Shown here: positions 1,000-33,410 of the stretch, piece after piece
Position numbering within the stretch: the stretch's first letter is position 1
Layout of the letters: each line of letters opens with the position of its first letter
IMG/VR virus record: IMGVR_UViG_3300042876_000224
Coordinates: 1-37,023 of that record
Length of the DNA stretch: 37,023 bases
Source of the DNA: a virus
Direction: 5' to 3' (one strand)
The notes under the pieces: model-generated
Seen by the model: the letters and a program-made list of their open reading frames with translations, nothing else
Database searches by the model: none
What the model was told of the DNA's origin: nothing
Translations under genes and position numbers: made by a program

Positions 1000-1035
1000 G
1001 GAAGGCTGCGAAGAAACAGCCGCGAAGACAGTCGG

Positions 1036-2016
1036 TTACGTCTTGGCCACCAGCCCCTGCTGCGGCTTGTTGCCGTAGCGCCGGTTGTAGAGCGCCTGCT
1101 GCTTGGCCATCAGCACCTTGTGCTCGGGGTGCTTGGCATCGGTAAAGCCGGGATGCGCGCGGATCTCGGCCATCTGCTCGTCCCATGACTGCGCGGCCGG
1201 CGTGCCCGCAAGGATCGGCGCCACGTCCTCCTGCAGCTGCGCACCGATCTTCGCCAGCAGGCGCAGTGCAAGCGGGTTGCTGTCGATCTGCGCGCGCTCC
1301 TCCTCGGTGAGGTCGCCGCCGAACTCGCTGATCGCCTTGAACGCGTGCCGCGCGTTGGCGTTGAACTCCGCCTCGGTCTTCCACACTTCGCGCAGCGCGA
1401 CCACCGCCTTGTCCGGTGTCGGCGCGGCCATCGCCTGCCGCTGGGCAAACTCGTTCAGGATGTAGCCGACCTGCTCGTTCGTCATGCCCTTGGCGTGCGC
1501 ACCCTTCAGAAACGACTTGTAGAGCGGGTCGGCCGCCAGCGCCTCGGCACTCAGGCCCTGCGGCAGTTCGGGCTTGTAGTCGTCGGGCGTGGGCGGCGCG
1601 AGGTTGCCGCTGCCCTGGCGCTTCTCGAGGTGCGCGTAGCTCTCGGCCAGCTTCTTCGCGCTGGCCTCGTAATCGACGGTGCCGTCGGCCTTCTTTACCG
1701 TGAACTTCTCAGGAATCGTCGGCGCTGCGCCCGGTTGCCCAGTGCCGCCTGCGCCTGTTGCGCTTCCTGCGCCAGCCGCAGCAGCTTCGCCTCCCGCCAC
1801 TTGAGTGCCAGCCGCACCGCCGGATGCTGCAGCGCCTGCTGCAAGGACACTCCCTCCCACCGCGCCACTGCCCCCAGGCTGACCGGCTGCGCCTGCCCCA
1901 CCAGCGGCGCCCGCAGCGCTCCCAGTGCCACCGCCAGCGCCAGCCGCTGCTGCCGCACCGCCAGCCGCACTGCCTTCGCTGCCCGCTGCATCCATGACCA
2001 CATGATTAGCCCTCAT
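1036..2016 (-). CDS. Scaffolding protein
   Basis: This 326-residue protein probably directs procapsid assembly and is then lost. Residues 1-100 are almost entirely Ala, Gly and Ser with some Pro and Gln. From about residue 100 follows a charged helical region (TIPEKFTVKKADGTVDYEAS, then YKPELPQGLSAEAL). The C-terminus is basic (YNRRYGNKPQQGLVAKT), as in many scaffolds that bind capsid through a basic tail. Start ATG 2016 has a GAGGAAG ribosome site and overlaps the previous gene by 11 bp. A later in-frame ATG at 1995 is possible. Position between portal and capsid supports the role. The low-complexity N-terminus is unusual and may be an expanded linker. Confidence 0.8.
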   Translation of the reverse strand: MRANHVVMDAAGSEGSAAGGAAAAAGAGGGTGSAAGAAGGAGAAGQPGGSGAVGGSVLAAGAAASGGAAGTQVAGGEAAAAGAGSATGAGGTGQPGAAPTIPEKFTVKKADGTVDYEASAKKLAESYAHLEKRQGSGNLAPPTPDDYKPELPQGLSAEALAADPLYKSFLKGAHAKGMTNEQVGYILNEFAQRQAMAAPTPDKAVVALREVWKTEAEFNANARHAFKAISEFGGDLTEEERAQIDSNPLALRLLAKIGAQLQEDVAPILAGTPAAQSWDEQMAEIRAHPGFTDAKHPEHKVLMAKQQALYNRRYGNKPQQGLVAKT

Positions 2017-2257
2017 CGGTTTCTTCCTCGGTTGGCACCCCGTTCGCGGCGTTGATGCGCGCCAGGATGTAGTTGATCGGGCGCCGCTCGCCGATGCGCA
2101 CCAAGGTTTCGCGCTCGGCGCCGCGGCCGCCCTTCACGTATGGCTCGCGGCAGAACCGCGACACCAACTCCTCGAGCACCGCCTGGCCTTCCGGGGTGCC
2201 CTCGAACACCCGCGCGTAGTAGCTCGGGTGCAGCGGCTCGCGTTTCGCGGCCGACAT
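2006..2257 (-). CDS. Small conserved virion-region protein
   Basis: This gene encodes 83 residues with no recognised domain. The protein is charged and probably helical (EGTPEGQAVLEELVSRFCRE, then ERRPINYILARINAANGVPT). Its ATG at 2257 overlaps the stop of the gene before it as TGATG, and its end overlaps the scaffold start. It is therefore translated together with portal and scaffold. T7-like genomes often have a small gene of unknown role between portal and capsid. Coding is likely, function unknown. Confidence 0.65.
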   Translation of the reverse strand: MSAAKREPLHPSYYARVFEGTPEGQAVLEELVSRFCREPYVKGGRGAERETLVRIGERRPINYILARINAANGVPTEEETDEG

Positions 2258-2637
2258 CAGGGAATCGTGTCGACGGCCAGCGTGTAGTTGAACGCGCCGA
2301 CGCCGCTGTGCAGCACGCGCACGCGAATGCCATCAAGCGGGGCGTCGCTGATCGCCACGTTGGCCACTGGCGTTACGGCTGGGTGCACGGTCAACACCTG
2401 ACGGCCGGTCGCCGCACTTGCTGTGGCGGCGGCAATCTGGCGCCACACCGGCACGGCCGTGGCACTGCCGGCCAGCGCCTGCGGTGGTCCGATGTTCTCC
2501 TCGATCACCAGCTGCACGGTGTCGACGGTGGGCACGGCCGTGACGTCGAGCACGGCCTTGACGCCGCTATCGCCAAGCCGGCGGAAGGCATCGCCATCGA
2601 AGGTGCTGGTACGGCCGGTCAGGGAATAGAACTGCAT
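2257..2637 (-). CDS. Hypothetical virion-region protein
   Basis: The 126-residue product begins MQFYSLTGRTSTFDGDAF. The start at ATG 2637 is chosen because GAGGAGAGG lies 6-7 bases upstream. The sequence is rich in Val, Ala and Thr with beta-strand patterns (KAVLDVTAVPTVDTVQLVIE, RVRVLHSGVGAFNYTL), suggesting a small beta-sandwich, perhaps a minor head or decoration protein. It lies between portal and scaffold, 13 bp from the portal stop. Fold and role are inference only. Confidence 0.6.
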   Translation of the reverse strand: MQFYSLTGRTSTFDGDAFRRLGDSGVKAVLDVTAVPTVDTVQLVIEENIGPPQALAGSATAVPVWRQIAAATASAATGRQVLTVHPAVTPVANVAISDAPLDGIRVRVLHSGVGAFNYTLAVDTIP

Positions 2638-2650
2638 CGGGGCCTCTCCT

Positions 2651-4249
2651 CTACGCGCGCGCCATGCGCTGCGTACTTGCGTCAATCATCTGCGACGCGG
2701 CCTGCTGCTGCAGTGCGTCCTGCTGCGCCCGCTGCTGTGCCTTCAGGCGCGCGTCGCGCAGTTCGTCGACCTTGCGCTTGTCCGGCAGCAGCTTCAGCGG
2801 CACGCCGAGCAGCGCCGCCTTGTGGCGCTTGGCCTCGTCCCAGTCGTACAGGTCGAGCACTTCGGGCTTGACCGCCGCGGTGCCGCCTAGGTCAGCCTCG
2901 AACCGGTCGATCGCGGCCACCTCCTCGAGCTGCTGCGCGCGGGCCAGCGGCGACTTGTACTTGACCGTGGCCGACCTGCCGCGCAGTGCGTCCGGCATCG
3001 GACCCAGCGCGCCGGCACGCAGCGCCAGGCCAAAGCAGCGTGCAACCAGCGGCTGCAGGTACTCGGCCTGCAGGCGACCGAAGCGCGGCCCCAGCAGCTG
3101 ACGCAGCAACGCGACACGACCCAGCCACTCGGTGGCGGTCATCTTCATGTCGGTCGGCGGCTGCAGCTGCTCGGCCATCAGCGTGCGGCGGATGGCCTGC
3201 TGCAGCTGCTCCTTCTTCGTGAAGGTGACGTTGAAGTCGGCGCCGGTCAGCAGCGGCTTCATGCTGTCGACCGAGTTGGCGACGATCACCTTGCGCGGGC
3301 CGACCTTCACCGTGCGCGGGTTCAGGACGCCGTCGTCCTCCGCGATCCACATGCCGCTGACTGCCAGGTCGACGGCCGCGTTCTCGCTGAAGACCAGGTT
3401 GTTGAGCTGGCGAATGTCCGGCAGCGCGTCGTAGATCGGGCCCACACCGAGCGACGAGTTCGGCAGCAGCGACCAGCGCGGTGCCACAACCGGCTGCTCG
3501 TGATAGCCCGACTCGCGCACCAGCTTCTTCGTTGCGACTTCCCATGTGCACGAGGCGATCGGCATGTTCGCCGCCATCTTGGCGCCCGGCTTGCGGTCGC
3601 GGCGCGGATAGATCATCCAGCGCAGCTTCACCTTGTCGTCGGGCTTCTCGATGGCCAGCTTGCGCACGGTGTCGCTGACCATGTTCTCGCCGAACGTGTT
3701 CACGCACTGCTCGGCGCTCAGCTCGTACTGGCGCACGAACGTGTCGAGCACGCCGCCCGGCTTGCTGGCGGTCGCGTACACCGAGCTCGCCGGCCACCAT
3801 TCGAACATCAGCCCGCCGACGTCGCGGTCCTCGTCGACGTACAGCGCGCCCCAGCCGCAGCCGACCAAGTCGGTCGTGACCTCTGGCGCGACCGCGTCGA
3901 AATTGCCCTGGTGAATGTTCTTCCACACCGTCAGCGCGGCGTTGTCGAGCCAGCGGACGGCGTCGCCTTCCAGCCCTTCGACCTCGAGGCCCATCCACTG
4001 CTGGTTGGCCGGCGTCATGCCGCCGACGATCGCGCTGACCAGGATGTTGCCGGCGTCCGTGCTGGTGCTGTCGAGCAGGTCGGCGCGCTTCGTCTGGCCG
4101 CTCAGTGCGTCCAGGTCCTCGCCGCTGAAGCCCTGCGCCCGCAGCGGCCACGAGTGCAGCATGCAGTCGCGCCAGACGGACTCATGACGCGCGCGGGCGG
4201 AGATGATCTCGCCGGCGCGTTTGTCGAGGGCTGCAACATCGGCCGCCAC
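2651..4249 (-). CDS. Portal (head-tail connector) protein, T7 gp8-like
   Basis: At 532 residues this has the usual length for T7-type portals, which form the 12-subunit ring through which DNA is packed and ejected. Recognisable blocks are TSTDAGNILVSAIVGGMTP, LPNSSLGVGPIYDALPDIRQ, LNNLVFSENAAVDLAVSG and PPTDMKMTATEWLGRV. The Gln/Ala-rich helical C-terminus (QQRAQQDALQQQAASQM) fits the barrel region. The start is GTG at 4249, one base after the TGA of the preceding gene. No truncation is seen. It leads the head assembly genes. Confidence 0.9.
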   Translation of the reverse strand: MAADVAALDKRAGEIISARARHESVWRDCMLHSWPLRAQGFSGEDLDALSGQTKRADLLDSTSTDAGNILVSAIVGGMTPANQQWMGLEVEGLEGDAVRWLDNAALTVWKNIHQGNFDAVAPEVTTDLVGCGWGALYVDEDRDVGGLMFEWWPASSVYATASKPGGVLDTFVRQYELSAEQCVNTFGENMVSDTVRKLAIEKPDDKVKLRWMIYPRRDRKPGAKMAANMPIASCTWEVATKKLVRESGYHEQPVVAPRWSLLPNSSLGVGPIYDALPDIRQLNNLVFSENAAVDLAVSGMWIAEDDGVLNPRTVKVGPRKVIVANSVDSMKPLLTGADFNVTFTKKEQLQQAIRRTLMAEQLQPPTDMKMTATEWLGRVALLRQLLGPRFGRLQAEYLQPLVARCFGLALRAGALGPMPDALRGRSATVKYKSPLARAQQLEEVAAIDRFEADLGGTAAVKPEVLDLYDWDEAKRHKAALLGVPLKLLPDKRKVDELRDARLKAQQRAQQDALQQQAASQMIDASTQRMARA

Positions 4250-8464: not shown

Positions 8465-8985
8465 CGCGCCAGCCCCATCATCGGCGTCGCTTCAGCCCAC
8501 GACTTGTTTCGCCAGATCAGGTAAACCAGCGACCGGTCGATGCCGAACTCGGCGGCAAGCGCGTTGGCCGGCTCCCCACGTCGGGCACGGATTTCGCGCG
8601 CCTTCTCGATCGTCAGCTTCTTCGACGTCTTGCGCCGGCCGATGGCAACGCGCACCGCGTGGCCGATGCCGGTGGCGACAAGCCCGCGCCGGGCGTTGAG
8701 CTTGGGCACTGTCTGCCGCGTCGCCTTCTGCATGTGCTCCGGATTCACGCACTGCGGCTCGTCGCAGATCTCGACGCGACGGGTGAGCACCACGCCGGCC
8801 GGGATTGGGCCGTGCACCAGCGACCAGGCGTAGCGGTGCGCCCAGTGCGATTTGCCGTTGATGCGCAGCCGACCATAGTTGCGGCCAGCAATGCACCCGC
8901 GCCAGACCAAGCAGCCGCACTCGAGCTTGCGCACCGGGTAGCGGCGCACGAACTCGTCCAGGGTGGCGGGTTCCGGCCGTGCCAT
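8461..8985 (-). CDS. HNH-domain protein with C-terminal helix-turn-helix
   Basis: The 174-residue product has an HNH_3-type homing-endonuclease fold: CGCLVWRGCIAGRNYGRLRI, then WAHRYAWSLVHGPIPAGVVL, then ICDEPQCVNPEHM. The usual first catalytic His before the CD motif is missing (RRVEICD), so cleavage may be lost. The C-terminal part SKKLTIEKAREIRARRGEPA with FGIDRSLVYLIWRNKSW is a helix-turn-helix typical of these proteins. ATG 8985 shares one base with the CII-like stop (TGATG). It may be a homing element or a regulator. Confidence 0.75.
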   Translation of the reverse strand: MARPEPATLDEFVRRYPVRKLECGCLVWRGCIAGRNYGRLRINGKSHWAHRYAWSLVHGPIPAGVVLTRRVEICDEPQCVNPEHMQKATRQTVPKLNARRGLVATGIGHAVRVAIGRRKTSKKLTIEKAREIRARRGEPANALAAEFGIDRSLVYLIWRNKSWAEATPMMGLAR

Positions 8986-9344
8986 CACCGCCCCCGCGCT
9001 TGCGTCACCAGCTCGTTCAGCACCGGCAGCAGCTGCGCGATTTGCGCAATGGCCTGCTGCTGCTGTGTGGCCGGATCTCGAAGGAACTTCTCGATCAGCC
9101 AGAAGATCGGCCGATGGTCGCCGGTGCTGGCAACGATGCCTTCCAGATCCTCGACGCGCAGCGGGCGCGGCTCGGCGCCGTCGATGTTCAGCCGCTTCGT
9201 CAGGTCGGTCGGGCTCATGTCTAGATCGCCCGCCACGCCGGCGACGCCCTTGCGGCTGGCGTACACAGCTGCGGCAGCGACCTCGCGTAGCGAGCGGTAC
9301 TGCGCGGTCAGGCCCGGGGTGAAGTTCAGGGTGAGCTGGTTCAT
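8985..9344 (-). CDS. CII-like phage regulatory protein
   Basis: The 119-residue product resembles the CII/CP76 regulatory family of P2- and 186-like phages, which activate lysogeny promoters. Matching blocks are SLREVAAAAVYASRKGVAGV, AGDLDMSPTDLTKRLN and EDLEGIVASTGDHRPIFWL followed by IEKFLRDPATQQQQ. An HTH lies around residues 33-52. It is the second gene after Cro and is separated from it by a terminator, exactly as cII follows cro and tR1 in lambda. Start ATG 9344 has AGGAAGGGG-like sequence only on the other strand, so the ribosome site is weak. Confidence 0.75.
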   Translation of the reverse strand: MNQLTLNFTPGLTAQYRSLREVAAAAVYASRKGVAGVAGDLDMSPTDLTKRLNIDGAEPRPLRVEDLEGIVASTGDHRPIFWLIEKFLRDPATQQQQAIAQIAQLLPVLNELVTQARGR

Positions 9345-9591: not shown

Positions 9592-9834
9592 TCACATCGA
9601 GGAGCCGCGGAGATGAGCGGATTGCTCGCGCAGAACGTCCCACGCGACATCCGGCCGGAGTTGCTCGCAGCGAATCTCGCCGCGAGTCAGCCGCTCGATG
9701 TCGGGGCACTTCTCGGCAGGCACCGTCCTTTTGCCCTGCAGCCAGAAGTAAACGAGCTGGTGGCTCACACCCAGCGCGGCGGCGGCGCCCTTGGCGCCTC
9801 CCAGCCGTTCGACAGCCTGTTTGATCGCGTCCAT
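9592..9834 (-). CDS. Cro-type repressor, YdaS-like
   Basis: The 80-residue product belongs to the YdaS/Cro HTH group: MDAIKQAVERLGGAKGAAAA, then LGVSHQLVYFWLQGKRTVPA, the recognition helix being around residues 22-38. Family members act as the early lytic repressor opposing cI. It is divergent from cI across a shared operator region. The predicted promoter -10 box ends at 9843 and the ATG is at 9834, so the mRNA would have essentially no leader. First gene of the leftward operon. Confidence 0.85.
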   Translation of the reverse strand: MDAIKQAVERLGGAKGAAAALGVSHQLVYFWLQGKRTVPAEKCPDIERLTRGEIRCEQLRPDVAWDVLREQSAHLRGSSM

Positions 9835-25597: not shown

Positions 25598-28069
25598 TCA
25601 CTGCCCCACGGCGGCGCCGAGGTCCGGTGCGCGGCTCGGCGTCGTGTCGGTCGGGTCCCACCAGAATTGCTGCTTCCAGTCCTTCTGCATCTTCTGCTTC
25701 ATGCGCGCAAGGTAGCCGGGTGACAGCGTCTCCTGCAAGTCGTTGATGAAGGTGCGCTCGAGCGCGGTCTTGGCGTACCAGAGATTGACGTAGGGCAGGT
25801 GCGAGCGCGCGAAGCGCAGCGCCTCCGCACCGGCGTGCGTCTGCTTGCCGCTGATTGCCTCGTCGATGTTGCCCTTGGTGAGCTCGAACAGGTCCGCCAC
25901 GCTGCCCGCCGTCGGCCCGGCCAGGCGGAACATTGGGTCGCTGCGGCTCAGGCTGTCGGCACTGTTTTCGAGCAGCACGTCGCCAAAGAACCCGGCGGCA
26001 CCGCCCTGCGCCATTGCGCGCACCCAGAACTTCGGCTGCGTCATGTCGACCGGGTCTTTGCCTGTGACCACCTGCTTGGCCTGGAACGCGACCGCGCCGA
26101 GCATCGTCAGCGACAGGCCCAGCGCCGAGGCGTAGGCGAGCCGGTTGCCCACCATCGGCGCGCCGTCCAAGTCCGGCACTTCGAACGCCCGCCGCCAGTG
26201 GCGCGAGATCATCGCGATCGGGAACGACTTGAACTGCATCACGCTGCGCCACAGCTCGCCGCGGATCGTGCCGCGCTGCTCGCCGGCCGTCGCCCACGCT
26301 CGTGTCGCCAAGTCCGGGTTGATGATCGCTGTCTGCGACTCGTCGACAATGAGAGACAGCAGCTTGGTGGCGGCCTGCCCATTGATCGAGCGCACGGCGT
26401 CAGGCGTCAGCAGCGGCGTGCCGTTGTAGTCGTCCAGCTTGGCCGTGTTGATGGCCTTCCAGTCGTCTTCGGTCAGGCCCTTGGATTCGAGGCGCCAGCG
26501 GTCGTACTCGGTGAGCTTGGCCCACTCGATGCCATGCAGGCGCGCCAGCCCGCTCATCATGGTCATCTGGAACGACCGGCGCAGGCCATCGGTCCAGGCG
26601 TTCAGTAGCGACAGCCGCATGGTGCTGTTCGCCAGTCGGCCGGTGATGCCGTCGCGCACGTTCTCGCCGGTCCATCGATTCAGGCTAGACAGCAGCGTCT
26701 CGGCCATCAGCCCGTGCGTGCTCATCAGCTCGCGCGCTTCCTTGGTGTTGGCGCGCACGATGTTGGCCAGCGCATCGAAGTAGGACAGCTTGTTGAAGCC
26801 GGTGGTGATGAAGTACGTCCCCAAGTCGGTGACGGACGAGAGCAACGCGCCGGCCAGCTTGCCCGCGGTCTGGATGTTGCGCACGTCCTGGCCGATCTGA
26901 GCCACCAGGCCGCGCCCGGCCACGCTCGACGCGTTGCCGCTGACGATGTTCCAGTACGTTTCGAGCCGCTGGCCGAACACCCGCCGCTCCTCGTTGCCGT
27001 CGGCGCGCTTGGCCAGATCCATCTGCAGGCGCATCTGGTTGTTCGGGTTCGGGCCGTACCGCTCGACCAGCGCAATGTCGCGCGCCTTCTGCGCGATGTG
27101 ACCCATCATCGCGTCGTACATCGACCCGCCGCCGAAGTCCGACAGATACTGCAGGTAGGCGTCGCCGTCCTTGAAATGGATCTCGCGCGCATCGCCGCCA
27201 CGGTTGGCGCGTGCCCCGCTGCCGGTGAAGGCGCCGGGGTCGCGCTTGTTGGCGCCGTCGCTGGTGATCGTCTCGTAGGACCGGCGCAGAAAGTCGAGTA
27301 CCTGCTGGTCGTTCATGCGGCTGCCGTCCTCGTTCAGGTAGCGGCTGCGGTCGAGCAGCGGCAGCACCTGGTTGGCCCAGCCGTCTTTCTGCGCGCGCGC
27401 AATCTTGATGGCGTCATGCGGCTGCGGCAGGTAGCCGTAGTCCAGCTTGCCAACATCGCCGCCGGCGCCGTTGAAGCGCACCCGCGCCGCCTCGATCGTG
27501 TCCAGCCACGCCTTTGCGCCCTTCTGCGCCAGCGCGTTGCCGGTCGAGCCATCCGCCCCGCGGAAGATCTCGAACGCCAGGTCGCGCGTCATCGCCGGGT
27601 TCGACACGTCCCACAGGAACATAGCTGCGCGCCGGCCGACGCCAACGCCCTGCTTGCTGGTCGACGCCTCGATCGTATCCAGCATGCCGGCGGTCATCTC
27701 GCGCTTGATTGCCTCGACTTGCACCTCGGTCTGCTCGAGGTCGCGCACCAGCGCCTCGTGGCGGTTGGCGCCGCCCATCACGCGCTGGTTCGTGCGCAGC
27801 CGCTCCTCGGTCTGCGCGGTCTTCAGCACCTGCAGCGCGGCGTTGCGCACCTTCACCTGCGCCTCGGCCTTGATATCGGCCATCGCCTGCTCAGCCGCCT
27901 TCAGCGTGCGCTGGTCCGCGCTGAGCGAGCGCCACGCCTGCAAGTCGTCGCGCGCCAGCATGGTCGCCGTGCGGCGCAGGCGGCTCTCGATCTCGGCGAG
28001 CTGGTTCTCGGTCAGCCGCCGGCCGGCGGCCTGGTTGATCTGCTGGACGCACTTCGGGTTGATGGCCAT
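25598..28069 (-). CDS. Large internal virion (DNA-ejection) protein
   Basis: The product is 823 residues. The N-terminal 100 residues are a charged coiled coil (MAINPKCVQQINQAAGRRLT, ENQLAEIESRLRRTATMLAR). The middle is mixed alpha/beta (GYLPQPHDAIKIARAQKDGW, GDAYLQYLSDFGGGSMYDAM) and the C-terminal half helical (NIVRANTKEARELMSTHGLM, SLNRWTGENVRDGITGRLA). Large proteins in this place in podophages are carried in the head and injected with DNA, like T7 gp16. No lytic transglycosylase motif is visible. It may include polyvalent-protein segments. Starts 2 bases past the previous stop. Confidence 0.75.
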   Translation of the reverse strand: MAINPKCVQQINQAAGRRLTENQLAEIESRLRRTATMLARDDLQAWRSLSADQRTLKAAEQAMADIKAEAQVKVRNAALQVLKTAQTEERLRTNQRVMGGANRHEALVRDLEQTEVQVEAIKREMTAGMLDTIEASTSKQGVGVGRRAAMFLWDVSNPAMTRDLAFEIFRGADGSTGNALAQKGAKAWLDTIEAARVRFNGAGGDVGKLDYGYLPQPHDAIKIARAQKDGWANQVLPLLDRSRYLNEDGSRMNDQQVLDFLRRSYETITSDGANKRDPGAFTGSGARANRGGDAREIHFKDGDAYLQYLSDFGGGSMYDAMMGHIAQKARDIALVERYGPNPNNQMRLQMDLAKRADGNEERRVFGQRLETYWNIVSGNASSVAGRGLVAQIGQDVRNIQTAGKLAGALLSSVTDLGTYFITTGFNKLSYFDALANIVRANTKEARELMSTHGLMAETLLSSLNRWTGENVRDGITGRLANSTMRLSLLNAWTDGLRRSFQMTMMSGLARLHGIEWAKLTEYDRWRLESKGLTEDDWKAINTAKLDDYNGTPLLTPDAVRSINGQAATKLLSLIVDESQTAIINPDLATRAWATAGEQRGTIRGELWRSVMQFKSFPIAMISRHWRRAFEVPDLDGAPMVGNRLAYASALGLSLTMLGAVAFQAKQVVTGKDPVDMTQPKFWVRAMAQGGAAGFFGDVLLENSADSLSRSDPMFRLAGPTAGSVADLFELTKGNIDEAISGKQTHAGAEALRFARSHLPYVNLWYAKTALERTFINDLQETLSPGYLARMKQKMQKDWKQQFWWDPTDTTPSRAPDLGAAVGQ

Positions 28070-28071
28070 GG

Positions 28072-30261
28072 CTACACCGTGAGAGCGCAGGCAGCGGCCA
28101 CCTGCAACAGGTTGGCGTCGGCGACCTCGGCGCGTGCCTGCTCTTGCGCAAGGCGCAACGCCTCGGCGGCGGTCACGCGCGTGCCGTCTGGGAGTTCGAC
28201 TTCGAGGGAGGGATTGGCGCGCGCAGCCTGCTCGGCCGCGGCAACTGCGGGGTCTACTGCTTCGGCTGATCCGCCGCCAGGCTGGCTGCCTTCAGGTTTT
28301 CCACCATCGCCAGCCCGATCCACTGCGACCGCTCCTTGAGCGGCATCGCCTTGAGCTCGGCTGCCGTCGGGAACTTGATCGGCGAAGCCTCGATAGGTTT
28401 GCTCGGAGATTCGACCTGCTTCACGTTCTTTCTCCAATGCCGCGCGGAGCTTGTCCACATCGACAGGGCTATTTTGCGCCTTCTTGGTCAGTGCCGCAAG
28501 GTCGGCAATTGCTTGATTTCCCTTGCCTTTCGAGTTGTCCACGCCGATGAACATCACGCGCGGATCGTCGGCGTACTCGGCGGCCAGGCGCGGGATCACT
28601 TCGGCCACGCCCTTGTGCGTCTTCAGGTGCTCGGCCAGCGGCACCGTGCGCCCGCTGCCGAACTCCTTGGCCTGCCGCTCGGCGCGCGGAAGCGCCCCGC
28701 CGGTCAGCGCGTCGACCGGGTCGCGGTACACCCACGCGATGGTCACCTCCTTGCCCGCCGCCAGCGCCTGCTCGATCTTGGCCTTGGACGAGTCGTAGGT
28801 GTTCATGTTCGTGTCGTACACGATCTGCGACACGTCTTTCGCCGCTTTCAGCGCCGGCAGGCCGTCGATCGCGCTCGTCTTGCCCGCGCCCGTGCCGCCA
28901 GCAGTGAACAGCACCATCGGCGCCTCGTCACCCTTTGGCGCCTCGGCCAGCTTGCGCTCGTACAGTCGCTTGATGAGCCAGCTGGCTGGCTCGTGCACCG
29001 CGGCCGACTTGGTGCGGTCGCGCAGGTAGTCGGGCGAGAGCTCGCGGGCGACGTCGGTGTTCAGCACCTTGCCGCCGTTGCTGTCCTTCAGCGCGGCATA
29101 GCGGGTGGCGGCCTCGTCGACGTTCTGCACGTCGGCGGCCATGCGCTGCTCGATCGCGCGATCGGCCGGCGCCAGGTCCTTGGCCTGCGGGATGATGGCG
29201 CGCTCGACCTTCTGCGCCATCTCTGCGATCTGCGGCGGCAGCGGCTCGCCCTCGCGCACCGGTGCCACGTCGGCCACGTTGACGCGCTCGCCGGCGGCCA
29301 ATTGCGTCTCGGCGCGGTCGCGGGCGGCGTGGTCGGCAGCATCGGCCGCCAGGTCGCCGGGCTTGGCCAGCGCCTGCTGGTCGGCCACTTCCCGCTGCAC
29401 GACGACGTGCGCGGCGTCGACCTGATCCTGCGTCGGGCGCGGTCCCGGCGTTACGCCCTTGCCGCGCATGGCCATCGCCCCGGCGCCGAACAGGAACGCG
29501 GCGCCCGTCGCTACCGTCAGCCCCAGCGGGTCGAACGGGTCGAACTGCTCGGCCTGCTTGCTGTAGTCGGCGGCCTTCAGGATCTCGCGCGCGGCCAGGT
29601 TCTCGGCGACGTAGGTGCCGGGACCACCGGCCGCAGCCAGTGCGCCAGTCTGTGCCCAGGTCTTGCCAGCCACCGGAAGCGCCACAGTGGCCGCCGCCGT
29701 CACGCCGCGCACCGCTGCGACCTTGGTGGCTGTCGTCGCGTCCACGCCCTGCTGGCGCAGCTCGTCGAAGGTGGCGCCGCCCTCGGACACGCCGACGCCG
29801 CCCATGGATGCCAGCGGCCCGCCCAGGAAGTAGCTCGCGCCGGCCTGGGTGACGAAGTCGCTGACGCCGAACAGCGCCTGCCCAGCAAAGCCTGTCGTCG
29901 TCGGATCCGGTTTGCGCTCGCGCGCCACGCGGCGCAGCTCGTCGGCCATGTCGGACTGCAGAAGGGTGTTGTCCTCGATGCGCTTCAGCGCCGCAGCCCG
30001 CTCCTGCTTGGCTTTCTCCGGGTCGGTGCGATTGATGATCGTCGCGCCGAACGGGTCGAACGCGCCCACCACCGTGCCGAACGCTTCGGCAATGTTGGCC
30101 TGCGCGGCGCCCGCCTTCAGGCCGCCGGAGGCCGCGCCCTTGGGTGCCGCCGACCAGATTCCGGACCAGAAGCCCGGGCTCGACTCCGACGCCCGGCCCG
30201 GCCGTTGCTGCATATCGTCGAGCACCCGATTCGTGCCGTCCTGATAGAGTGCGTCCAGCAT
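28072..30261 (-). CDS. Internal virion / ejection protein with zeta-toxin-like kinase domain
   Basis: The product is 729 residues. Residues 1-250 are Gly/Ala-rich with hydrophobic stretches (VTAAATVALPVAGKTWAQTG, GLTVATGAAFLFGAGAMAM). Residues ~390-610 match a zeta-toxin-like P-loop kinase: ARELSPDYLRDRTKSAAVHE, then VLFTAGGTGAGKTSAIDGL (Walker A from Gly455, Lys461, Thr462), NMNTYDSSKAKIEQALAAG, VTIAWVYRDPVDALTGGA and an RTVPLAEHLKTHKGVAEVI lid-like part. The tail is disordered. Zeta enzymes phosphorylate UDP-amino sugars or other small substrates. Within a virion operon this suggests a polyvalent protein sent into the host with the DNA; the effect is inferred. Confidence 0.75.
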   Translation of the reverse strand: MLDALYQDGTNRVLDDMQQRPGRASESSPGFWSGIWSAAPKGAASGGLKAGAAQANIAEAFGTVVGAFDPFGATIINRTDPEKAKQERAAALKRIEDNTLLQSDMADELRRVARERKPDPTTTGFAGQALFGVSDFVTQAGASYFLGGPLASMGGVGVSEGGATFDELRQQGVDATTATKVAAVRGVTAAATVALPVAGKTWAQTGALAAAGGPGTYVAENLAAREILKAADYSKQAEQFDPFDPLGLTVATGAAFLFGAGAMAMRGKGVTPGPRPTQDQVDAAHVVVQREVADQQALAKPGDLAADAADHAARDRAETQLAAGERVNVADVAPVREGEPLPPQIAEMAQKVERAIIPQAKDLAPADRAIEQRMAADVQNVDEAATRYAALKDSNGGKVLNTDVARELSPDYLRDRTKSAAVHEPASWLIKRLYERKLAEAPKGDEAPMVLFTAGGTGAGKTSAIDGLPALKAAKDVSQIVYDTNMNTYDSSKAKIEQALAAGKEVTIAWVYRDPVDALTGGALPRAERQAKEFGSGRTVPLAEHLKTHKGVAEVIPRLAAEYADDPRVMFIGVDNSKGKGNQAIADLAALTKKAQNSPVDVDKLRAALEKEREAGRISEQTYRGFADQVPDGSRAQGDAAQGAVAVDRAGDGGKPEGSQPGGGSAEAVDPAVAAAEQAARANPSLEVELPDGTRVTAAEALRLAQEQARAEVADANLLQVAAACALTV

Positions 30262-30502
30262 GTGGCGCTACCTCCGCACCAGCACGTCGTTCTGGCTCGT
30301 CGCCGGCTGCTTGGCCGTCGTCGGCGCAGCGTTCGTCGCCGCACTGCTCGAGCACGGCGCGAAGGCGTGGGAGCACATCGGCGTGGCCGGATATGCGGCG
30401 GCCGCCATCGGCACAATCTGGGCCGTCATCGCTGCGCTTGGCTGGCTCATTGCCCGCCTTCTGAGAAGTCCAGGATCACGCGCCGGCCTGCGGCGTCGGT
30501 GA
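30260..30502 (+). CDS. Possible two-helix membrane protein on the opposite strand
   Basis: The frame encodes 80 residues filling the 185 bp gap between two leftward virion genes, but reading rightward. It has two strong hydrophobic segments (FWLVAGCLAVVGAAFVAALL and GYAAAAIGTIWAVIAALGWL) with Arg-rich ends on both sides, fitting a hairpin with both termini in the cytoplasm. It would be the only rightward gene in the late block. The ribosome site is poor (GAGTG) and no promoter is evident. The competing minus-strand frame at 30268-30450 shares its third codon positions, so base composition cannot decide. Confidence 0.4.
   Translation: MWRYLRTSTSFWLVAGCLAVVGAAFVAALLEHGAKAWEHIGVAGYAAAAIGTIWAVIAALGWLIARLLRSPGSRAGLRRR
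30268..30450 (-). CDS. Small hypothetical frame in the virion operon (alternative to 30260-30502)
   Basis: The frame encodes 60 residues. ATG 30450 overlaps the preceding stop by ATGA and its TAG lies 6 bases before the next start, so it fits the operon exactly. The sequence (SQPSAAMTAQIVPMAAAAYP, then CSSSAATNAAPTTAKQPATS) is Ala/Ser/Thr/Pro-rich and does not look like a folded protein. Either this or the opposite-strand membrane protein is real; both are uncertain. Confidence 0.35.
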   Translation of the reverse strand: MSQPSAAMTAQIVPMAAAAYPATPMCSHAFAPCSSSAATNAAPTTAKQPATSQNDVLVRR

Positions 30503-32459
30503 TGAACGTCGAGCCCGCGCGGATCGCGTAGCGGCCCTGTCCGGCATACACCAGCAAGGCATTCGGCAGCTGCGACTGCACCTGCTCGCGCGTCACCGTC
30601 GCCTGTCCGGCGCGCATCTCGCTCGGCAGCTTGTCCGCCGGGTACGTGCGCAACCCCTGCGTGAAGTCGCGCTCCGTCCAGCCATAGGGCAGCGGCAGCT
30701 TGCTGTCGTCCTTCTGCGTGAGCACGCCGCCGGTGGCCAGGCGCACCGCCTGCGACACGTCGGCCTTGCCGTCGGCGGCCAGCCCCAGCAACACGCTGTA
30801 GCTGGCGTCCACCATCCGCTGGCGCAGTTCCTCGTTCGGATAGGCGTTGCCGATCTCGGTCGCGATCGACGCGCGCCAGCCCGTCTCCTTCGCGCGGTCT
30901 TCCTTGATCTTGCCGTCGCGCTGCGCCTGCTCGCCGCGCAGGATGAGCTCCGACACGTAGCGGCCCTTGGTCGTCTTGGTGTCGGCGTACATCAGCGCGG
31001 TGGCGAGGTTCCGGTCCTTGCCGTCGATCTGTCGCGCCAAGGCGATCAGCTGGTCCTTGTCGCCGATCGTCGAGCCCAGGGTGGCCAGCGCGCTCGCCTT
31101 CTGGTCCGGCGGCAGCTGTGCCAGCAACCGCGTCAGCTGCTCAGCTTCCATCGGGCGCAGCGGTGACACCGGCTGCCCAGCCCAGACTGACGCGGTGCGC
31201 GCGGCGCTCACGCGCTCGCCGAGCTGCTGCGGCAGGCTGGCAATGTCGGTGATCTGCAGCGGCCGCAGCGTGGGCACCACGCCGTAGTCGTTGGCCGCGC
31301 CGAGCGCGTCCTGCTTCACGGCCGTCTGCACAGCGCCGAGCACCTTCTCGCGTCGCTTGATCTCGTCCTCGAGTGCCGGCGTGCTGCCCTCGGTGTTGCC
31401 GCGCGTGCGCAGCGTGTCCAGTGCCGCCACCTGCTGCTGCACCGGCAGCGTCGCAGCGGCCGCGTTCTGCGGCCCCGTCTTGATGATCTGCGCCATGGCC
31501 ACCGCGTAGGGCGAGCCGGCGAGGTTGCGCTGCACGAAGTCCGCGTACTCCGGCGTGAACGTCCGGCCGGCCTCGAACACCTTCATCGCGGCGTCGAACA
31601 CCTTCTGCTGCTCGCGCGCGATGCGCTCGGCCTCGATGCGCGCCCTCTCCTGCTGGCGCAGGACAGCAGCGTCAGCCGTGGCCACCAACGCCGCGCGGCG
31701 GTTCGGGTCGAGGTCCGGCAGGAACTCCGGGTTCTTCAGCTGCTGCAGCGCGGCCGCGGGGTTGGCCATCACCAGGTCGGACGCCTGGCGAAAGCGCACG
31801 TTCTCCTTGAACGCCTGCACCGTCTTCTGCGCGTCCAGCCCCGCACGGCCAGCGATACTCGGGATGAACGCCTCGACGCTGCGGATCGCCTCATCCGCCT
31901 GCGCGCCGCCGCGCGCCGCGTGGCGCTGCATCTCCTCGAGGTAGCTGCTGGCGCCCTGCGTCAGGTCGGCCTTGTCCTTGGCGTCGACCAGTTTGCCCAG
32001 CGTCTTGCGGGCGGTGTTGAGGTTGTCGGCGAGCGTCGCCTCGACCAGCGGCCGGTGCTCCTCGTCGACGCCTTCCAGCGCGCCCTGCGTCAGCGCCTGG
32101 CTGCGCGCGGCCCATGTCTCCGCGGCCGTCGTCTTGTCGATCGTGCCGTCGGCCAGCCCCTTGGCGAACTCGTCGTTCAGGTCGTTCAGCCCGTTCTGCA
32201 CCTTGGCGGTGGTCGTCAGCGCGCGCACGCGGTTGGCCTCGCGCTGCTGCTGCTTGGCCTCGGCCTCCTGCTGCCGGCGCAGCGCGTCAGCCTGGCGCTG
32301 CTGCTGGTCGACGATCTGCATGCCGGCGGCGCCCGCGCGTTCGAGCTCCTGCCCGATGCCGGCGCCCGCGTCCTGCGCCGTCGGCAGCACACCGCGCTGC
32401 GGTGCGGCCACGCGCGTGCCGACTGCGAACTCCTGGTCGCCCAGTGGGATGCGTGCCAT
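30447..32459 (-). CDS. Internal virion protein, T7 gp15-like position
   Basis: The product is 670 residues, mostly helical with Gln/Ala/Arg-rich heptads (MQIVDQQQRQADALRRQQEA, QERARIEAERIAREQQKVFD). It begins MARIPLGDQEFAVGTRVAAP and ends TFITDAAGRRVILDFSEGGQ. In T7-like phages the long helical protein after gp14 forms part of the ejection tube across the periplasm. ATG 32459 shares its A with the previous TAA stop (TAATG). Assigned from position, size and helix content. Confidence 0.75.
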   Translation of the reverse strand: MARIPLGDQEFAVGTRVAAPQRGVLPTAQDAGAGIGQELERAGAAGMQIVDQQQRQADALRRQQEAEAKQQQREANRVRALTTTAKVQNGLNDLNDEFAKGLADGTIDKTTAAETWAARSQALTQGALEGVDEEHRPLVEATLADNLNTARKTLGKLVDAKDKADLTQGASSYLEEMQRHAARGGAQADEAIRSVEAFIPSIAGRAGLDAQKTVQAFKENVRFRQASDLVMANPAAALQQLKNPEFLPDLDPNRRAALVATADAAVLRQQERARIEAERIAREQQKVFDAAMKVFEAGRTFTPEYADFVQRNLAGSPYAVAMAQIIKTGPQNAAAATLPVQQQVAALDTLRTRGNTEGSTPALEDEIKRREKVLGAVQTAVKQDALGAANDYGVVPTLRPLQITDIASLPQQLGERVSAARTASVWAGQPVSPLRPMEAEQLTRLLAQLPPDQKASALATLGSTIGDKDQLIALARQIDGKDRNLATALMYADTKTTKGRYVSELILRGEQAQRDGKIKEDRAKETGWRASIATEIGNAYPNEELRQRMVDASYSVLLGLAADGKADVSQAVRLATGGVLTQKDDSKLPLPYGWTERDFTQGLRTYPADKLPSEMRAGQATVTREQVQSQLPNALLVYAGQGRYAIRAGSTFITDAAGRRVILDFSEGGQ

Positions 32460-32956
32460 TAGAAGATCCTCCGGCCGTCACGCGTCACGCCTGTGCCGTC
32501 CGCGTTGTTGCGCACGATGTCGCTGCTGCTGCCCGACATGGCCCAGCCCTGCGCCACCGACGAGCCCGCGCGCAGCACCGACTGGAACAGCGCGTTGCGG
32601 CCGCTGCGCCGCGCCGAGTCGCCCTGCGCGACCAGCTCGCGCGCGCGCCGCTCGCCGGTGAGCAGCGTCATGCGCGCGTCCTCGGCGCCGCGCTGCGTGA
32701 TGTCCTGGCCGATGTCGAGCGAGGTTGCGCTGTCCAGCGTCACGCCGGCGCCCGCCAGCGCCGCCTTCGCCGCGCCCCTGGCCTGTTCGGTGCGCCGGCC
32801 GATCTTGGCGGCCTCGGCAGCCGCTGCGTCGCGCTCGGCGATCGCCTGCGCGTTGTAGATCGTCTGCTGCGCCTGGCCGGCAGCGTTGGCCGCCATGCCT
32901 TGCGAGATCGACCCCGCGGCCTGCATGCCCGCGAAGGCCAGCATCGGGTTACACAT
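32459..32956 (-). CDS. Internal virion protein, T7 gp14-like
   Basis: The product is 165 residues. It starts MCNPMLAFAGMQAAGSISQG, then a long Ala/Gln/Glu helix (AANAAGQAQQTIYNAQAIAE, RDAAAAEAAKIGRRTEQARG) and the segment AALAGAGVTLDSATSLDIGQ often seen in podophage internal virion proteins. It has a Gly/Ser-rich hydrophobic part near the C-terminus (VLRAGSSVAQGWAMSG). gp14-type proteins form a channel in the outer membrane during ejection. ATG 32956 overlaps the previous gene by 8 bp and has AGAGGG upstream. Confidence 0.8.
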   Translation of the reverse strand: MCNPMLAFAGMQAAGSISQGMAANAAGQAQQTIYNAQAIAERDAAAAEAAKIGRRTEQARGAAKAALAGAGVTLDSATSLDIGQDITQRGAEDARMTLLTGERRARELVAQGDSARRSGRNALFQSVLRAGSSVAQGWAMSGSSSDIVRNNADGTGVTRDGRRIF

Positions 32957-33410
32957 GAACGCCCTCTATCTCGAACTCGAGGAACGCGCCGTTCGGGCCG
33001 ACGGGCTCCGGTTTCACATGGAACCCCAGCCACTTGAGCCAGCGGATTGCCCGGCGGTGCTCGGCGTGCACCCAGTTCGACAGCACCGCGAAACGCGCGC
33101 GCATCTGGCCCACGACCTGGCGCGACAGAACCGCACCGGCGACGCCGCTCTCGGCGAACTTGTCGGTCGCGATCATCCAGACGATCCCGCGGTCCGGCTC
33201 GCCCAGCATGGCGTTCACACCGAACAGCGCGACCGGCTCGCCGTCGGCGTACACGGCACCGGCTTGCGCCGCCTCGCGCGCGGCCAGAGCGAACACTTCC
33301 GGCGGGTCCTGCAGGCCAGCGGCCAGCATCTCGGCCCGGTCGGCGCGGCTCAGGTGTTCGAGCACGTAGTCGATCGCGTCCAGCGTCACGGTGCGCACTT
33401 CCAGCTTCAT
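32949..33410 (-). CDS. gp13-like protein (DUF2833, GNAT-like fold)
   Basis: The product is 153 residues. The pattern YVLEHLSRADRAEMLAAGL, YADGEPVALFGVNAMLGEPD, IVWMIATDKFAESGV and SNWVHAEHRRAIRWLKWLGF is that of the T7 gp13/DUF2833 group, with an acetyltransferase-like fold that probably serves a structural or assembly role. The WLKWLGF end is typical of GNAT C-termini. ATG 33410 overlaps the tail tubular B stop. Position between gp12-like and gp14-like genes matches T7. Confidence 0.8.
   Translation of the reverse strand: MKLEVRTVTLDAIDYVLEHLSRADRAEMLAAGLQDPPEVFALAAREAAQAGAVYADGEPVALFGVNAMLGEPDRGIVWMIATDKFAESGVAGAVLSRQVVGQMRARFAVLSNWVHAEHRRAIRWLKWLGFHVKPEPVGPNGAFLEFEIEGVHV

What the first reader, a model, noticed from the sequence alone, without database searches (positions are those of the whole stretch)
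28072..30261. Zeta-toxin-like kinase domain built into a predicted ejected virion protein
A full Walker A (GGTGAGKTSAID) and surrounding zeta-like elements lie in a 729-residue protein between gp15-like and terminase genes. Zeta toxins usually act with an epsilon antitoxin; none is present. Known polyvalent proteins of phages carry effector domains into the cell with DNA. This one could phosphorylate a host metabolite or nucleotide at entry.
Basis: partly seen in the sequence, partly recalled or inferred. Interest (0 to 1): 0.7.

Follow-up and report, generated by a model that had tools for sequence, protein, structure and literature searches.

The report
Zeta-type kinase in phage ejection protein
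A temperate short-tailed phage carries an intact enzyme domain, related to bacterial 'zeta' toxins that sabotage cell-wall building blocks, inside one of the proteins it is predicted to eject into the host with its DNA; the idea that phages do this was published in 2017, but this version, its place in the ejection machinery and its wide distribution are new detail.

Summary
The 729-aa ORF (minus strand, 30261..28072) has a zeta-kinase domain at residues ~365-627 (Pfam Zeta_toxin E 2.4e-13; AlphaFold pLDDT 96.7; best PDB match gonococcal ng_zeta1, TM 0.80). It is not PezT-like. It has the 'rewired' ng_zeta1 order, with catalytic Asp403 before the P-loop Lys461. D403 and K461 are invariant in 76/76 non-redundant relatives; R526 and R538 (= R175/R181 of ng_zeta1) are conserved in at least 74. 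The N-terminus is an epsilon15-gp16-type ejection protein. The middle of that protein is an exchangeable cassette: SLT, GNAT, PBECR1, ART-PolyVal, ddrB-ParB or zeta in relatives, between a conserved N-module and a C-tail with an invariant Cys. In 28 loci the zeta ORF lies next to (in 23 overlapping) the gp17-like gene. No epsilon antitoxin was found, and most loci leave no room for an adjacent one. So 'ejected polyvalent-type kinase' is well supported. The substrate is unknown: one UDP-MurNAc contact (N75) is Ser/Ala, and with ng_zeta1 kinetics 6-12 ejected copies would not outpace wall synthesis. Iyer et al. 2017 already predicted zeta kinases in polyvalent and MuF proteins, so this is a new variant of a known kind.

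The parts
28072..30261 (-). P0001, predicted ejected virion protein (epsilon15 gp16-like slot) with zeta-kinase cassette, 729 aa
29239..30261 (-). Conserved N-terminal helical ejection module, residues 1-341 (phrog_11561, phrog_1145; homologous to BcepC6B gp16 and phiV10 p19)
28381..29169 (-). Zeta-kinase domain, residues ~365-627, rewired ng_zeta1 topology
29053..29055 (-). Predicted catalytic base Asp403 (= D56 of ng_zeta1), 76/76 conserved
28873..28899 (-). Walker A/P-loop GGTGAGKTS, residues 455-463, Lys461 (= K115 of ng_zeta1) 76/76 conserved
28807..28815 (-). Family signature D483-T-N485 (D and N 76/76), aligned with E-G-Q of ng_zeta1
28684..28686 (-). Arg526 (= R175 of ng_zeta1), 74/76
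28648..28650 (-). Arg538 (= R181 of ng_zeta1), 75/75
28075..28212 (-). Conserved C-terminal tail, residues 684-729, ending ..AAxC(F/A)L.. with invariant Cys725 whatever the cassette
25598..28069 (-). P0002, gp17-like virion structural protein (phrog_684; BcepC6B gp17 38% identity), immediate downstream neighbour
30447..32459 (-). P0003, gp15-like ejection protein, upstream neighbour (homologues occupy the same place in relatives, e.g. L046, L060, L097)
32459..33410 (-). Two internal virion proteins (phrog_418 and phrog_308)

Best explanation
P0001 is an ejection (pilot) protein of an epsilon15/BcepC6B-like temperate podovirus. Its exchangeable middle cassette is an active zeta-family small-molecule kinase with the rewired ng_zeta1 topology. 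It is made late and packaged without an antitoxin. At infection the N-terminal helical module helps form the trans-envelope conduit and the C-terminal half, with the kinase, reaches the cytoplasm where ATP is available. Asp403 then activates a hydroxyl of a nucleotide-linked substrate, most likely a UDP-activated sugar, for transfer of the ATP gamma-phosphate bound by the P-loop and Arg526/Arg538. The product is unusable or inhibitory for the host's wall/LPS precursor pathway and gives the incoming phage a short-lived advantage. Shown by computation: fold, topology, conserved active site, homology to the gp16-type ejection protein, cassette exchange, operon position, no neighbouring antitoxin. 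Inferred: packaging, ejection, cytoplasmic delivery, activity, substrate class, benefit.
For: Zeta fold: Pfam E 2.4e-13 and 61/61 relatives match; AF2 pLDDT 96.7, pTM 0.93; Foldseek 6EPH TM 0.80, E 3.8e-13, against TM 0.38-0.49 for canonical zeta/PezT. Active site conserved in 76 non-redundant domains, including K461 in the 13 rows matching only the NTD pattern and D403 in the 16 rows without an NTD-pattern match. Ejection identity: hhalign of the family against phiV10 p19 99.9%, E 1.5e-33; p19 is annotated as similar to epsilon15 gp16, and epsilon15 gp16 is treated as a gp16-like ejection protein in PMC8954989. In T7 the gp16 C-terminal part is placed in the cytoplasm. Cassette exchange with ART-PolyVal, PBECR1, GNAT, SLT and ddrB-ParB. 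28 distinct loci with zeta next to the gp17-like gene.
Against: No virion proteomics or activity data. ng_zeta1 substrate contact N75 is Ser/Ala and K59 is Arg here; the family adds its own signature (D483, N485, H545, H549), so the substrate may differ. With ng_zeta1 kinetics, 6-12 copies give 140-500 turnovers/s on UDP-MurNAc and 0.4-3/s on UDP-GlcNAc, against ~1000-3000 wall units/s made by the cell (the last figure is own knowledge), so simple draining at entry is doubtful. In the immediate clade three members lack the zeta cassette, so it is dispensable.
Confidence: 0.55

Rival explanations
1. The ejected kinase acts on a different, scarcer nucleotide-type metabolite (for example NAD+ or a host defence signal) rather than on wall precursors. 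It would be a counter-defence effector, in line with the other cytosolic cassettes of the same slot.
For: AvrRxo1 (an NAD kinase by own knowledge) is also a fold neighbour. Family-specific residues D483, N485, H545, H549, absent from ng_zeta1, are nearly invariant and N75 is not kept. A scarce substrate suits a few ejected copies. Alternative cassettes are ART-PolyVal, GNAT, PBECR1 RNase and ddrB-ParB.
Against: The nearest fold by a wide margin is the UDP-sugar kinase ng_zeta1 (TM 0.80 against 0.45-0.50), with D56/K115/R175/R181 all kept. No direct pointer to NAD or a signal nucleotide.
Confidence: 0.25
2. The kinase matters in the producing cell, not the recipient: made in many copies late in the lytic cycle, it depletes wall precursors and helps lysis; its fusion to an ejection protein keeps it sequestered until then.
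For: Late-gene operon position. ng_zeta1 expression lyses E. coli (PMC5923241). Many more copies exist in the producing cell than in one virion (argument).
Against: Fusion to the ejected protein in all 28 slot loci, and the delivery logic of the other cassettes (ART, GNAT, RNase), point to the recipient. Dedicated lysis genes exist in relatives.
Confidence: 0.1
3. A MuF-like polymorphic toxin of a temperate phage used against competitors, with lysogens protected by an immunity protein.
For: The phage is temperate (integrase, Cro- and CII-like genes). MuF polymorphic toxins of temperate phages are known (PMC5576092). Cassette variability.
Against: MuF toxins typically have a small immunity ORF downstream; here 23/28 loci have the zeta ORF overlapping the next virion gene. 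No epsilon homologue. The nearby antisense two-TM ORF also occurs without zeta.
Confidence: 0.07
4. A catalytically dead relic or purely structural/ATP-binding domain.
For: Cassette is dispensable in close relatives.
Against: Catalytic D, K and both Args are conserved at 30-60% overall identity.
Confidence: 0.03

Closest known systems
ng_zeta1 of Neisseria gonorrhoeae epsilon1/zeta1 (6EPG/6EPH/6EPI; PMC5923241)
   Same: Same fold (TM 0.80) and same rewired order (catalytic Asp before P-loop); D56, K115, R175, R181 all have counterparts.
   Different: No antitoxin partner found, no C-terminal OB domain assigned, N75 replaced by Ser/Ala, extra family signature D-x-N and two His, 6-residue insertion between the Args in P0001, embedded in a phage ejection protein.
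Zeta-toxin-like kinases in polyvalent and MuF proteins (Iyer et al. 2017, PMC5512222)
   Same: Zeta kinase as effector in proteins predicted to enter the host with DNA; the same proposed role (weakening the wall to help entry) was stated there.
   Different: They reported it in conjugative elements and MuF fusions. Here it is in the gp16-type ejection protein of podoviruses, with rewired topology and conserved active site documented across 76 domains.
epsilon15/phiV10 gp16 and BcepC6B gp16 ejection proteins
   Same: Homologous N-module and C-tail, same operon slot upstream of the gp17-like gene.
   Different: phiV10 p19 has no recognised enzyme domain; BcepC6B gp16 carries an SLT transglycosylase; P0001 carries the kinase and no SLT.
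Streptococcal zeta / PezT (1GVN, 3Q8X, 2P5T)
   Same: P-loop kinase superfamily fold, TM 0.38-0.49.
   Different: Different order of sequence blocks; epsilon/PezA partner; C3'-OH UNAG kinase.

Membership tests
Zeta_toxin (PF06414) | Score above Pfam's curated cut-off | tested here: met
   50.4 bits vs 22.3, E 2.4e-13; 61/61 relatives match
Zeta_toxin (PF06414) | Walker A with catalytic Lys, Asp base and two Arg | tested here: met
   D403, K461, R526, R538 by profile alignment, conserved 74-76 of 76; superposition of atoms not tested
Canonical zeta/PezT subfamily | Catalytic Asp C-terminal to the P-loop | tested here: not met
   D403 lies 58 residues before K461; TM 0.38-0.49 to 1GVN/3Q8X/2P5T
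ng_zeta1 (rewired) subfamily | Rewired order with Asp before P-loop and ng_zeta1 fold | tested here: met
ng_zeta1 (rewired) subfamily | UDP-MurNAc contacts Lys59 and Asn75 | tested here: not met
   Arg in 74/76 (Lys in 2) and Ser/Ala in 76/76
Epsilon/zeta toxin-antitoxin system | Cognate antitoxin gene | tested here: not met
   No PF08998 match in the genome; overlap with next gene in 23/28 loci. An unrelated ng_epsilon1-like antitoxin would not be recognised by that model
Epsilon/zeta toxin-antitoxin system | UDP-sugar kinase activity and toxicity | not testable with these tools
   needs enzymology
Polyvalent proteins (Iyer 2017) | Encoded among late virion genes | tested here: met
   between gp15-like and gp17-like genes
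Polyvalent proteins (Iyer 2017) | Two or more distinct domains, with typical polyvalent effectors | tested here: inconclusive
   P0001 itself: ejection module plus one effector. Slot homologues carry ddrB-ParB, ART-PolyVal or PBECR1
Polyvalent proteins (Iyer 2017) | Packaged and delivered into the host | not testable with these tools
   needs virion mass spectrometry or a translocation assay
epsilon15 gp16-type ejection protein | Homologous N-terminal module and same gene order | tested here: met
   hhalign 99.9%, E 1.5e-33; blastp 5e-14; order
MuF polymorphic toxin | MuF domain and downstream immunity ORF | tested here: not met
   no MuF domain found by Pfam; next ORF is the gp17-like virion gene

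The most novel reading that the evidence does not exclude
The phage family is a distinct branch of rewired zeta kinases (signature NTDxAREL ... GGTGAGK ... YDTNM ... GRTVP..H..TH) with a substrate other than bulk wall precursors, a scarce nucleotide-linked metabolite or defence signal. It would be delivered in a few copies by the ejection machinery as an interchangeable counter-defence or host-takeover cassette.
Probability: 0.22. Interest if true: 0.78.

Novelty: new variant of a known kind. Interest (0 to 1): 0.5.

Why it matters
It places an intact, conserved kinase inside one of the ejection proteins of short-tailed phages, and shows that the same slot swaps among at least five enzyme types. 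Which enzymes phages inject with their DNA, and what they do in the first minutes, is a long-standing open question; here it becomes directly testable by virion mass spectrometry, a UDP-sugar/nucleotide kinase panel and a K461A phage mutant. The family is common in uncultured phages (at least 293 IMG/VR stretches) but was found in only 1 of 50,697 phage records, which may be why it has not been studied.

Tried and rejected
Canonical PezT-type reading: rejected (order of blocks, TM-scores). Antitoxin search: PF08998 none; small window genes by Pfam gave no antitoxin. The 185-nt gap upstream looked like room for an antitoxin. It holds an antisense two-TM ORF whose counterparts also occur in relatives without zeta, so it is not a zeta antitoxin. 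SLT elsewhere in the genome: none. ddrB-ParB in this genome: none. Defence-system library: P0001 matches nothing. NCBIfam: no named family. Full-length AF2 model: ejection module only moderately confident (pTM 0.48) and Foldseek found no ejection-protein match for it. Literature for zeta in internal virion proteins: no hits in the held library. Cassette-change tree: at least 3 changes of zeta presence on the gp17-like tree, but sampling was by zeta and N-module queries, so rates cannot be read from it. Circularity: relatives were retrieved by P-loop or NTD patterns, so conservation was re-checked in rows lacking one of the two patterns.

Full report
WHAT WAS CHECKED. The ORF exists at the stated coordinates, on the minus strand, 729 aa. 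The P-loop GGTGAGKTS is residues 455-463. Pfam gives Zeta_toxin at 2.4e-13 and nothing else. The window is a virus record with a 127-nt direct terminal repeat, so an essentially complete genome of about 36.9 kb. It carries an integrase, a Cro/YdaS-like repressor and a CII-like gene and is therefore most likely temperate. Its closest isolate relative by the neighbouring structural protein is Burkholderia phage BcepC6B, followed by the phiV10/epsilon15 group. Relatives of the zeta domain in bacterial assemblies include Thiobacillus, Sulfuritalea, Rubrivivax and other Burkholderiales MAGs, so a betaproteobacterial host is a reasonable guess.

WHAT THE DOMAIN IS. A single-sequence search of the PDB hits only ng_zeta1 of N. 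gonorrhoeae with significance. A profile from 61 relatives hits it at 1.9e-22. AlphaFold2 with 61 sequences gives pLDDT 96.7; Foldseek ranks ng_zeta1 chains first (TM 0.78-0.80), with canonical zeta, PezT and AvrRxo1 well below (TM 0.38-0.50). In ng_zeta1 two sequence blocks are swapped relative to streptococcal zeta toxins, so the catalytic Asp56 precedes the P-loop Lys115 (PMC5923241). P0001 has this order: NTD403VAR406EL..., then K461. By profile alignment D403=D56, R406=K59, S419=N75, K461=K115, R526=R175, R538=R181.

CONSERVATION. Among 76 non-redundant domains D403, G455, G456, G458, G460, K461, D483 and N485 are invariant; R406 74/76, R513 73/76, R526 74/76, R538 75/75, H549 74/74. Because relatives were retrieved with a P-loop or an NTD pattern, I checked the 13 rows matching only the NTD pattern (all keep K461) and the 16 rows without an NTD match (all keep D403, K461 and both Arg). 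This argues for an active kinase. The UDP-MurNAc-specific contact N75 is Ser or Ala throughout, and the family has its own D-x-N and His signature, so the substrate should not be assumed.

WHERE IT SITS. The N-terminal module is homologous to BcepC6B gp16 and phiV10 p19, an epsilon15 gp16 relative (hhalign 99.9%, E 1.5e-33). That slot is the third ejection protein of these podoviruses; in T7 its counterpart gp16 spans the periplasm and inner membrane with its C-terminal part placed in the cytoplasm. [quoted passage not shown] Where an SLT transglycosylase is also present it lies N-terminal to them (L017, L020, L026), an order that fits periplasm first and cytoplasm second (inference). Relatives carry in the same place SLT, SLT+PBECR1, SLT+GNAT, ART-PolyVal, zeta+ddrB-ParB and zeta+ddrB-ParB+(weak) ART, or only coiled-coil-like sequence by eye. 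The C-terminal tail ending AAxCFL.. with an invariant Cys is kept regardless of cassette.

DISTRIBUTION. 293 viral-contig stretches but only 15 genome-contig loci encode relatives, one phage record and one weak plasmid match. Of the 94 distinct zeta ORFs examined, 28 lie next to a gp17-like gene, 23 of them overlapping its start. Others are in giant polyvalent proteins or standalone ~300-aa genes; in three standalone cases examined the gene is just upstream of terminase and portal genes. On the gp17-like tree the window groups with L097 and L123 (zeta) and with L002 (the contig whose slot protein, also held as L015, carries ART), L007 and L009 (no enzyme recognised): the cassette is gained or lost within close kin.

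ANTITOXIN. None found: no PF08998, and the next gene downstream starts at once. In the window the downstream gap is 2 nt and the upstream gap 185 nt. The upstream gap is filled by an antisense two-TM ORF that is also found beside zeta-less relatives and so is not a zeta antitoxin. A novel antitoxin elsewhere in the genome cannot be excluded.

HOW IT MOST LIKELY WORKS. An ejected kinase acting in the cytoplasm on a nucleotide-linked small molecule, probably a UDP-sugar. A stoichiometric check limits the simple version. With ng_zeta1 constants (kcat 200/s, KM 0.23 mM for UDP-MurNAc), the pool sizes quoted in that paper and 6-12 ejected copies (6 gp16 in T7 after ejection; about 12 in P22), the rate is about 140-500 per second, against about 1000-3000 wall units made per second (own knowledge). 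It could dent but not stop precursor flow, and with UDP-GlcNAc it would be negligible. So either the product is inhibitory (as UNAG-3P is for MurA), the substrate is scarce, or the enzyme is faster than ng_zeta1.

KNOWN OR NEW. Iyer et al. [quoted passage not shown] The concept is therefore known. New here, as far as the held library shows: the rewired subclass, the gp16-type ejection slot, the cassette exchange series, the conserved active site across a large phage-borne family, and the kinetic argument. I rate it a new variant of a known kind.

Noticed in passing
window 30260-30502 (+); L001:8623-8814(-), L097:9136-9327(-), L123:9112-9300(-), L007:7291-7491(-), L009:2917-3117(-), L068:10306-10488(-), L112:8818-9000(-): Small ORF with two predicted transmembrane segments, on the strand opposite the ejection operon, filling a 130-245 nt gap between ejection genes in the window's clade, with or without zeta. 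Protein-level similarity (e.g. IIPLxIWGGSGxWRxALHA) and some third-position bias (L007/L009 differences 16/10/26) suggest it is coding; no PHROG match and no sigma-70 consensus promoter. Could be a superinfection-exclusion 'moron' acting on DNA entry.
   Followed up: partly
window 28075-28212 (-) and the C-termini of slot proteins in L001-L136: C-terminal tail motif ..AAxCF(L/I).. with an invariant Cys (C725), conserved while the middle cassettes change: candidate packaging or assembly signal of the ejection protein.
   Followed up: partly
L017:5995-8274, L020:5834-8095, L026:5653-7875, L015:56-1879: Same ejection-protein slot carries PBECR1 nuclease, GNAT acetyltransferase or ART-PolyVal cassettes in BcepC6B-like viral contigs: a compact catalogue of candidate injected effectors.
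   Followed up: partly
L102:7827-8726, L116:7713-8786, L051:5680-6594: Standalone ~300-360 aa genes of the same zeta family lie roughly 0.5-2.5 kb upstream of terminase and portal genes in other phages.
   Followed up: partly
L004:10144-12780 (MW202577.1): The only phage-collection record with this domain is annotated 'thymidylate kinase' in an 878-aa protein; the name looks like a misannotation of the zeta domain.
   Followed up: no
window 9592-9834 (-): 80-aa Cro/YdaS-like regulator (PF15943 E 9.3e-26), and a CII-like CP76 gene at 8985-9344: lysogeny control region.
   Followed up: no
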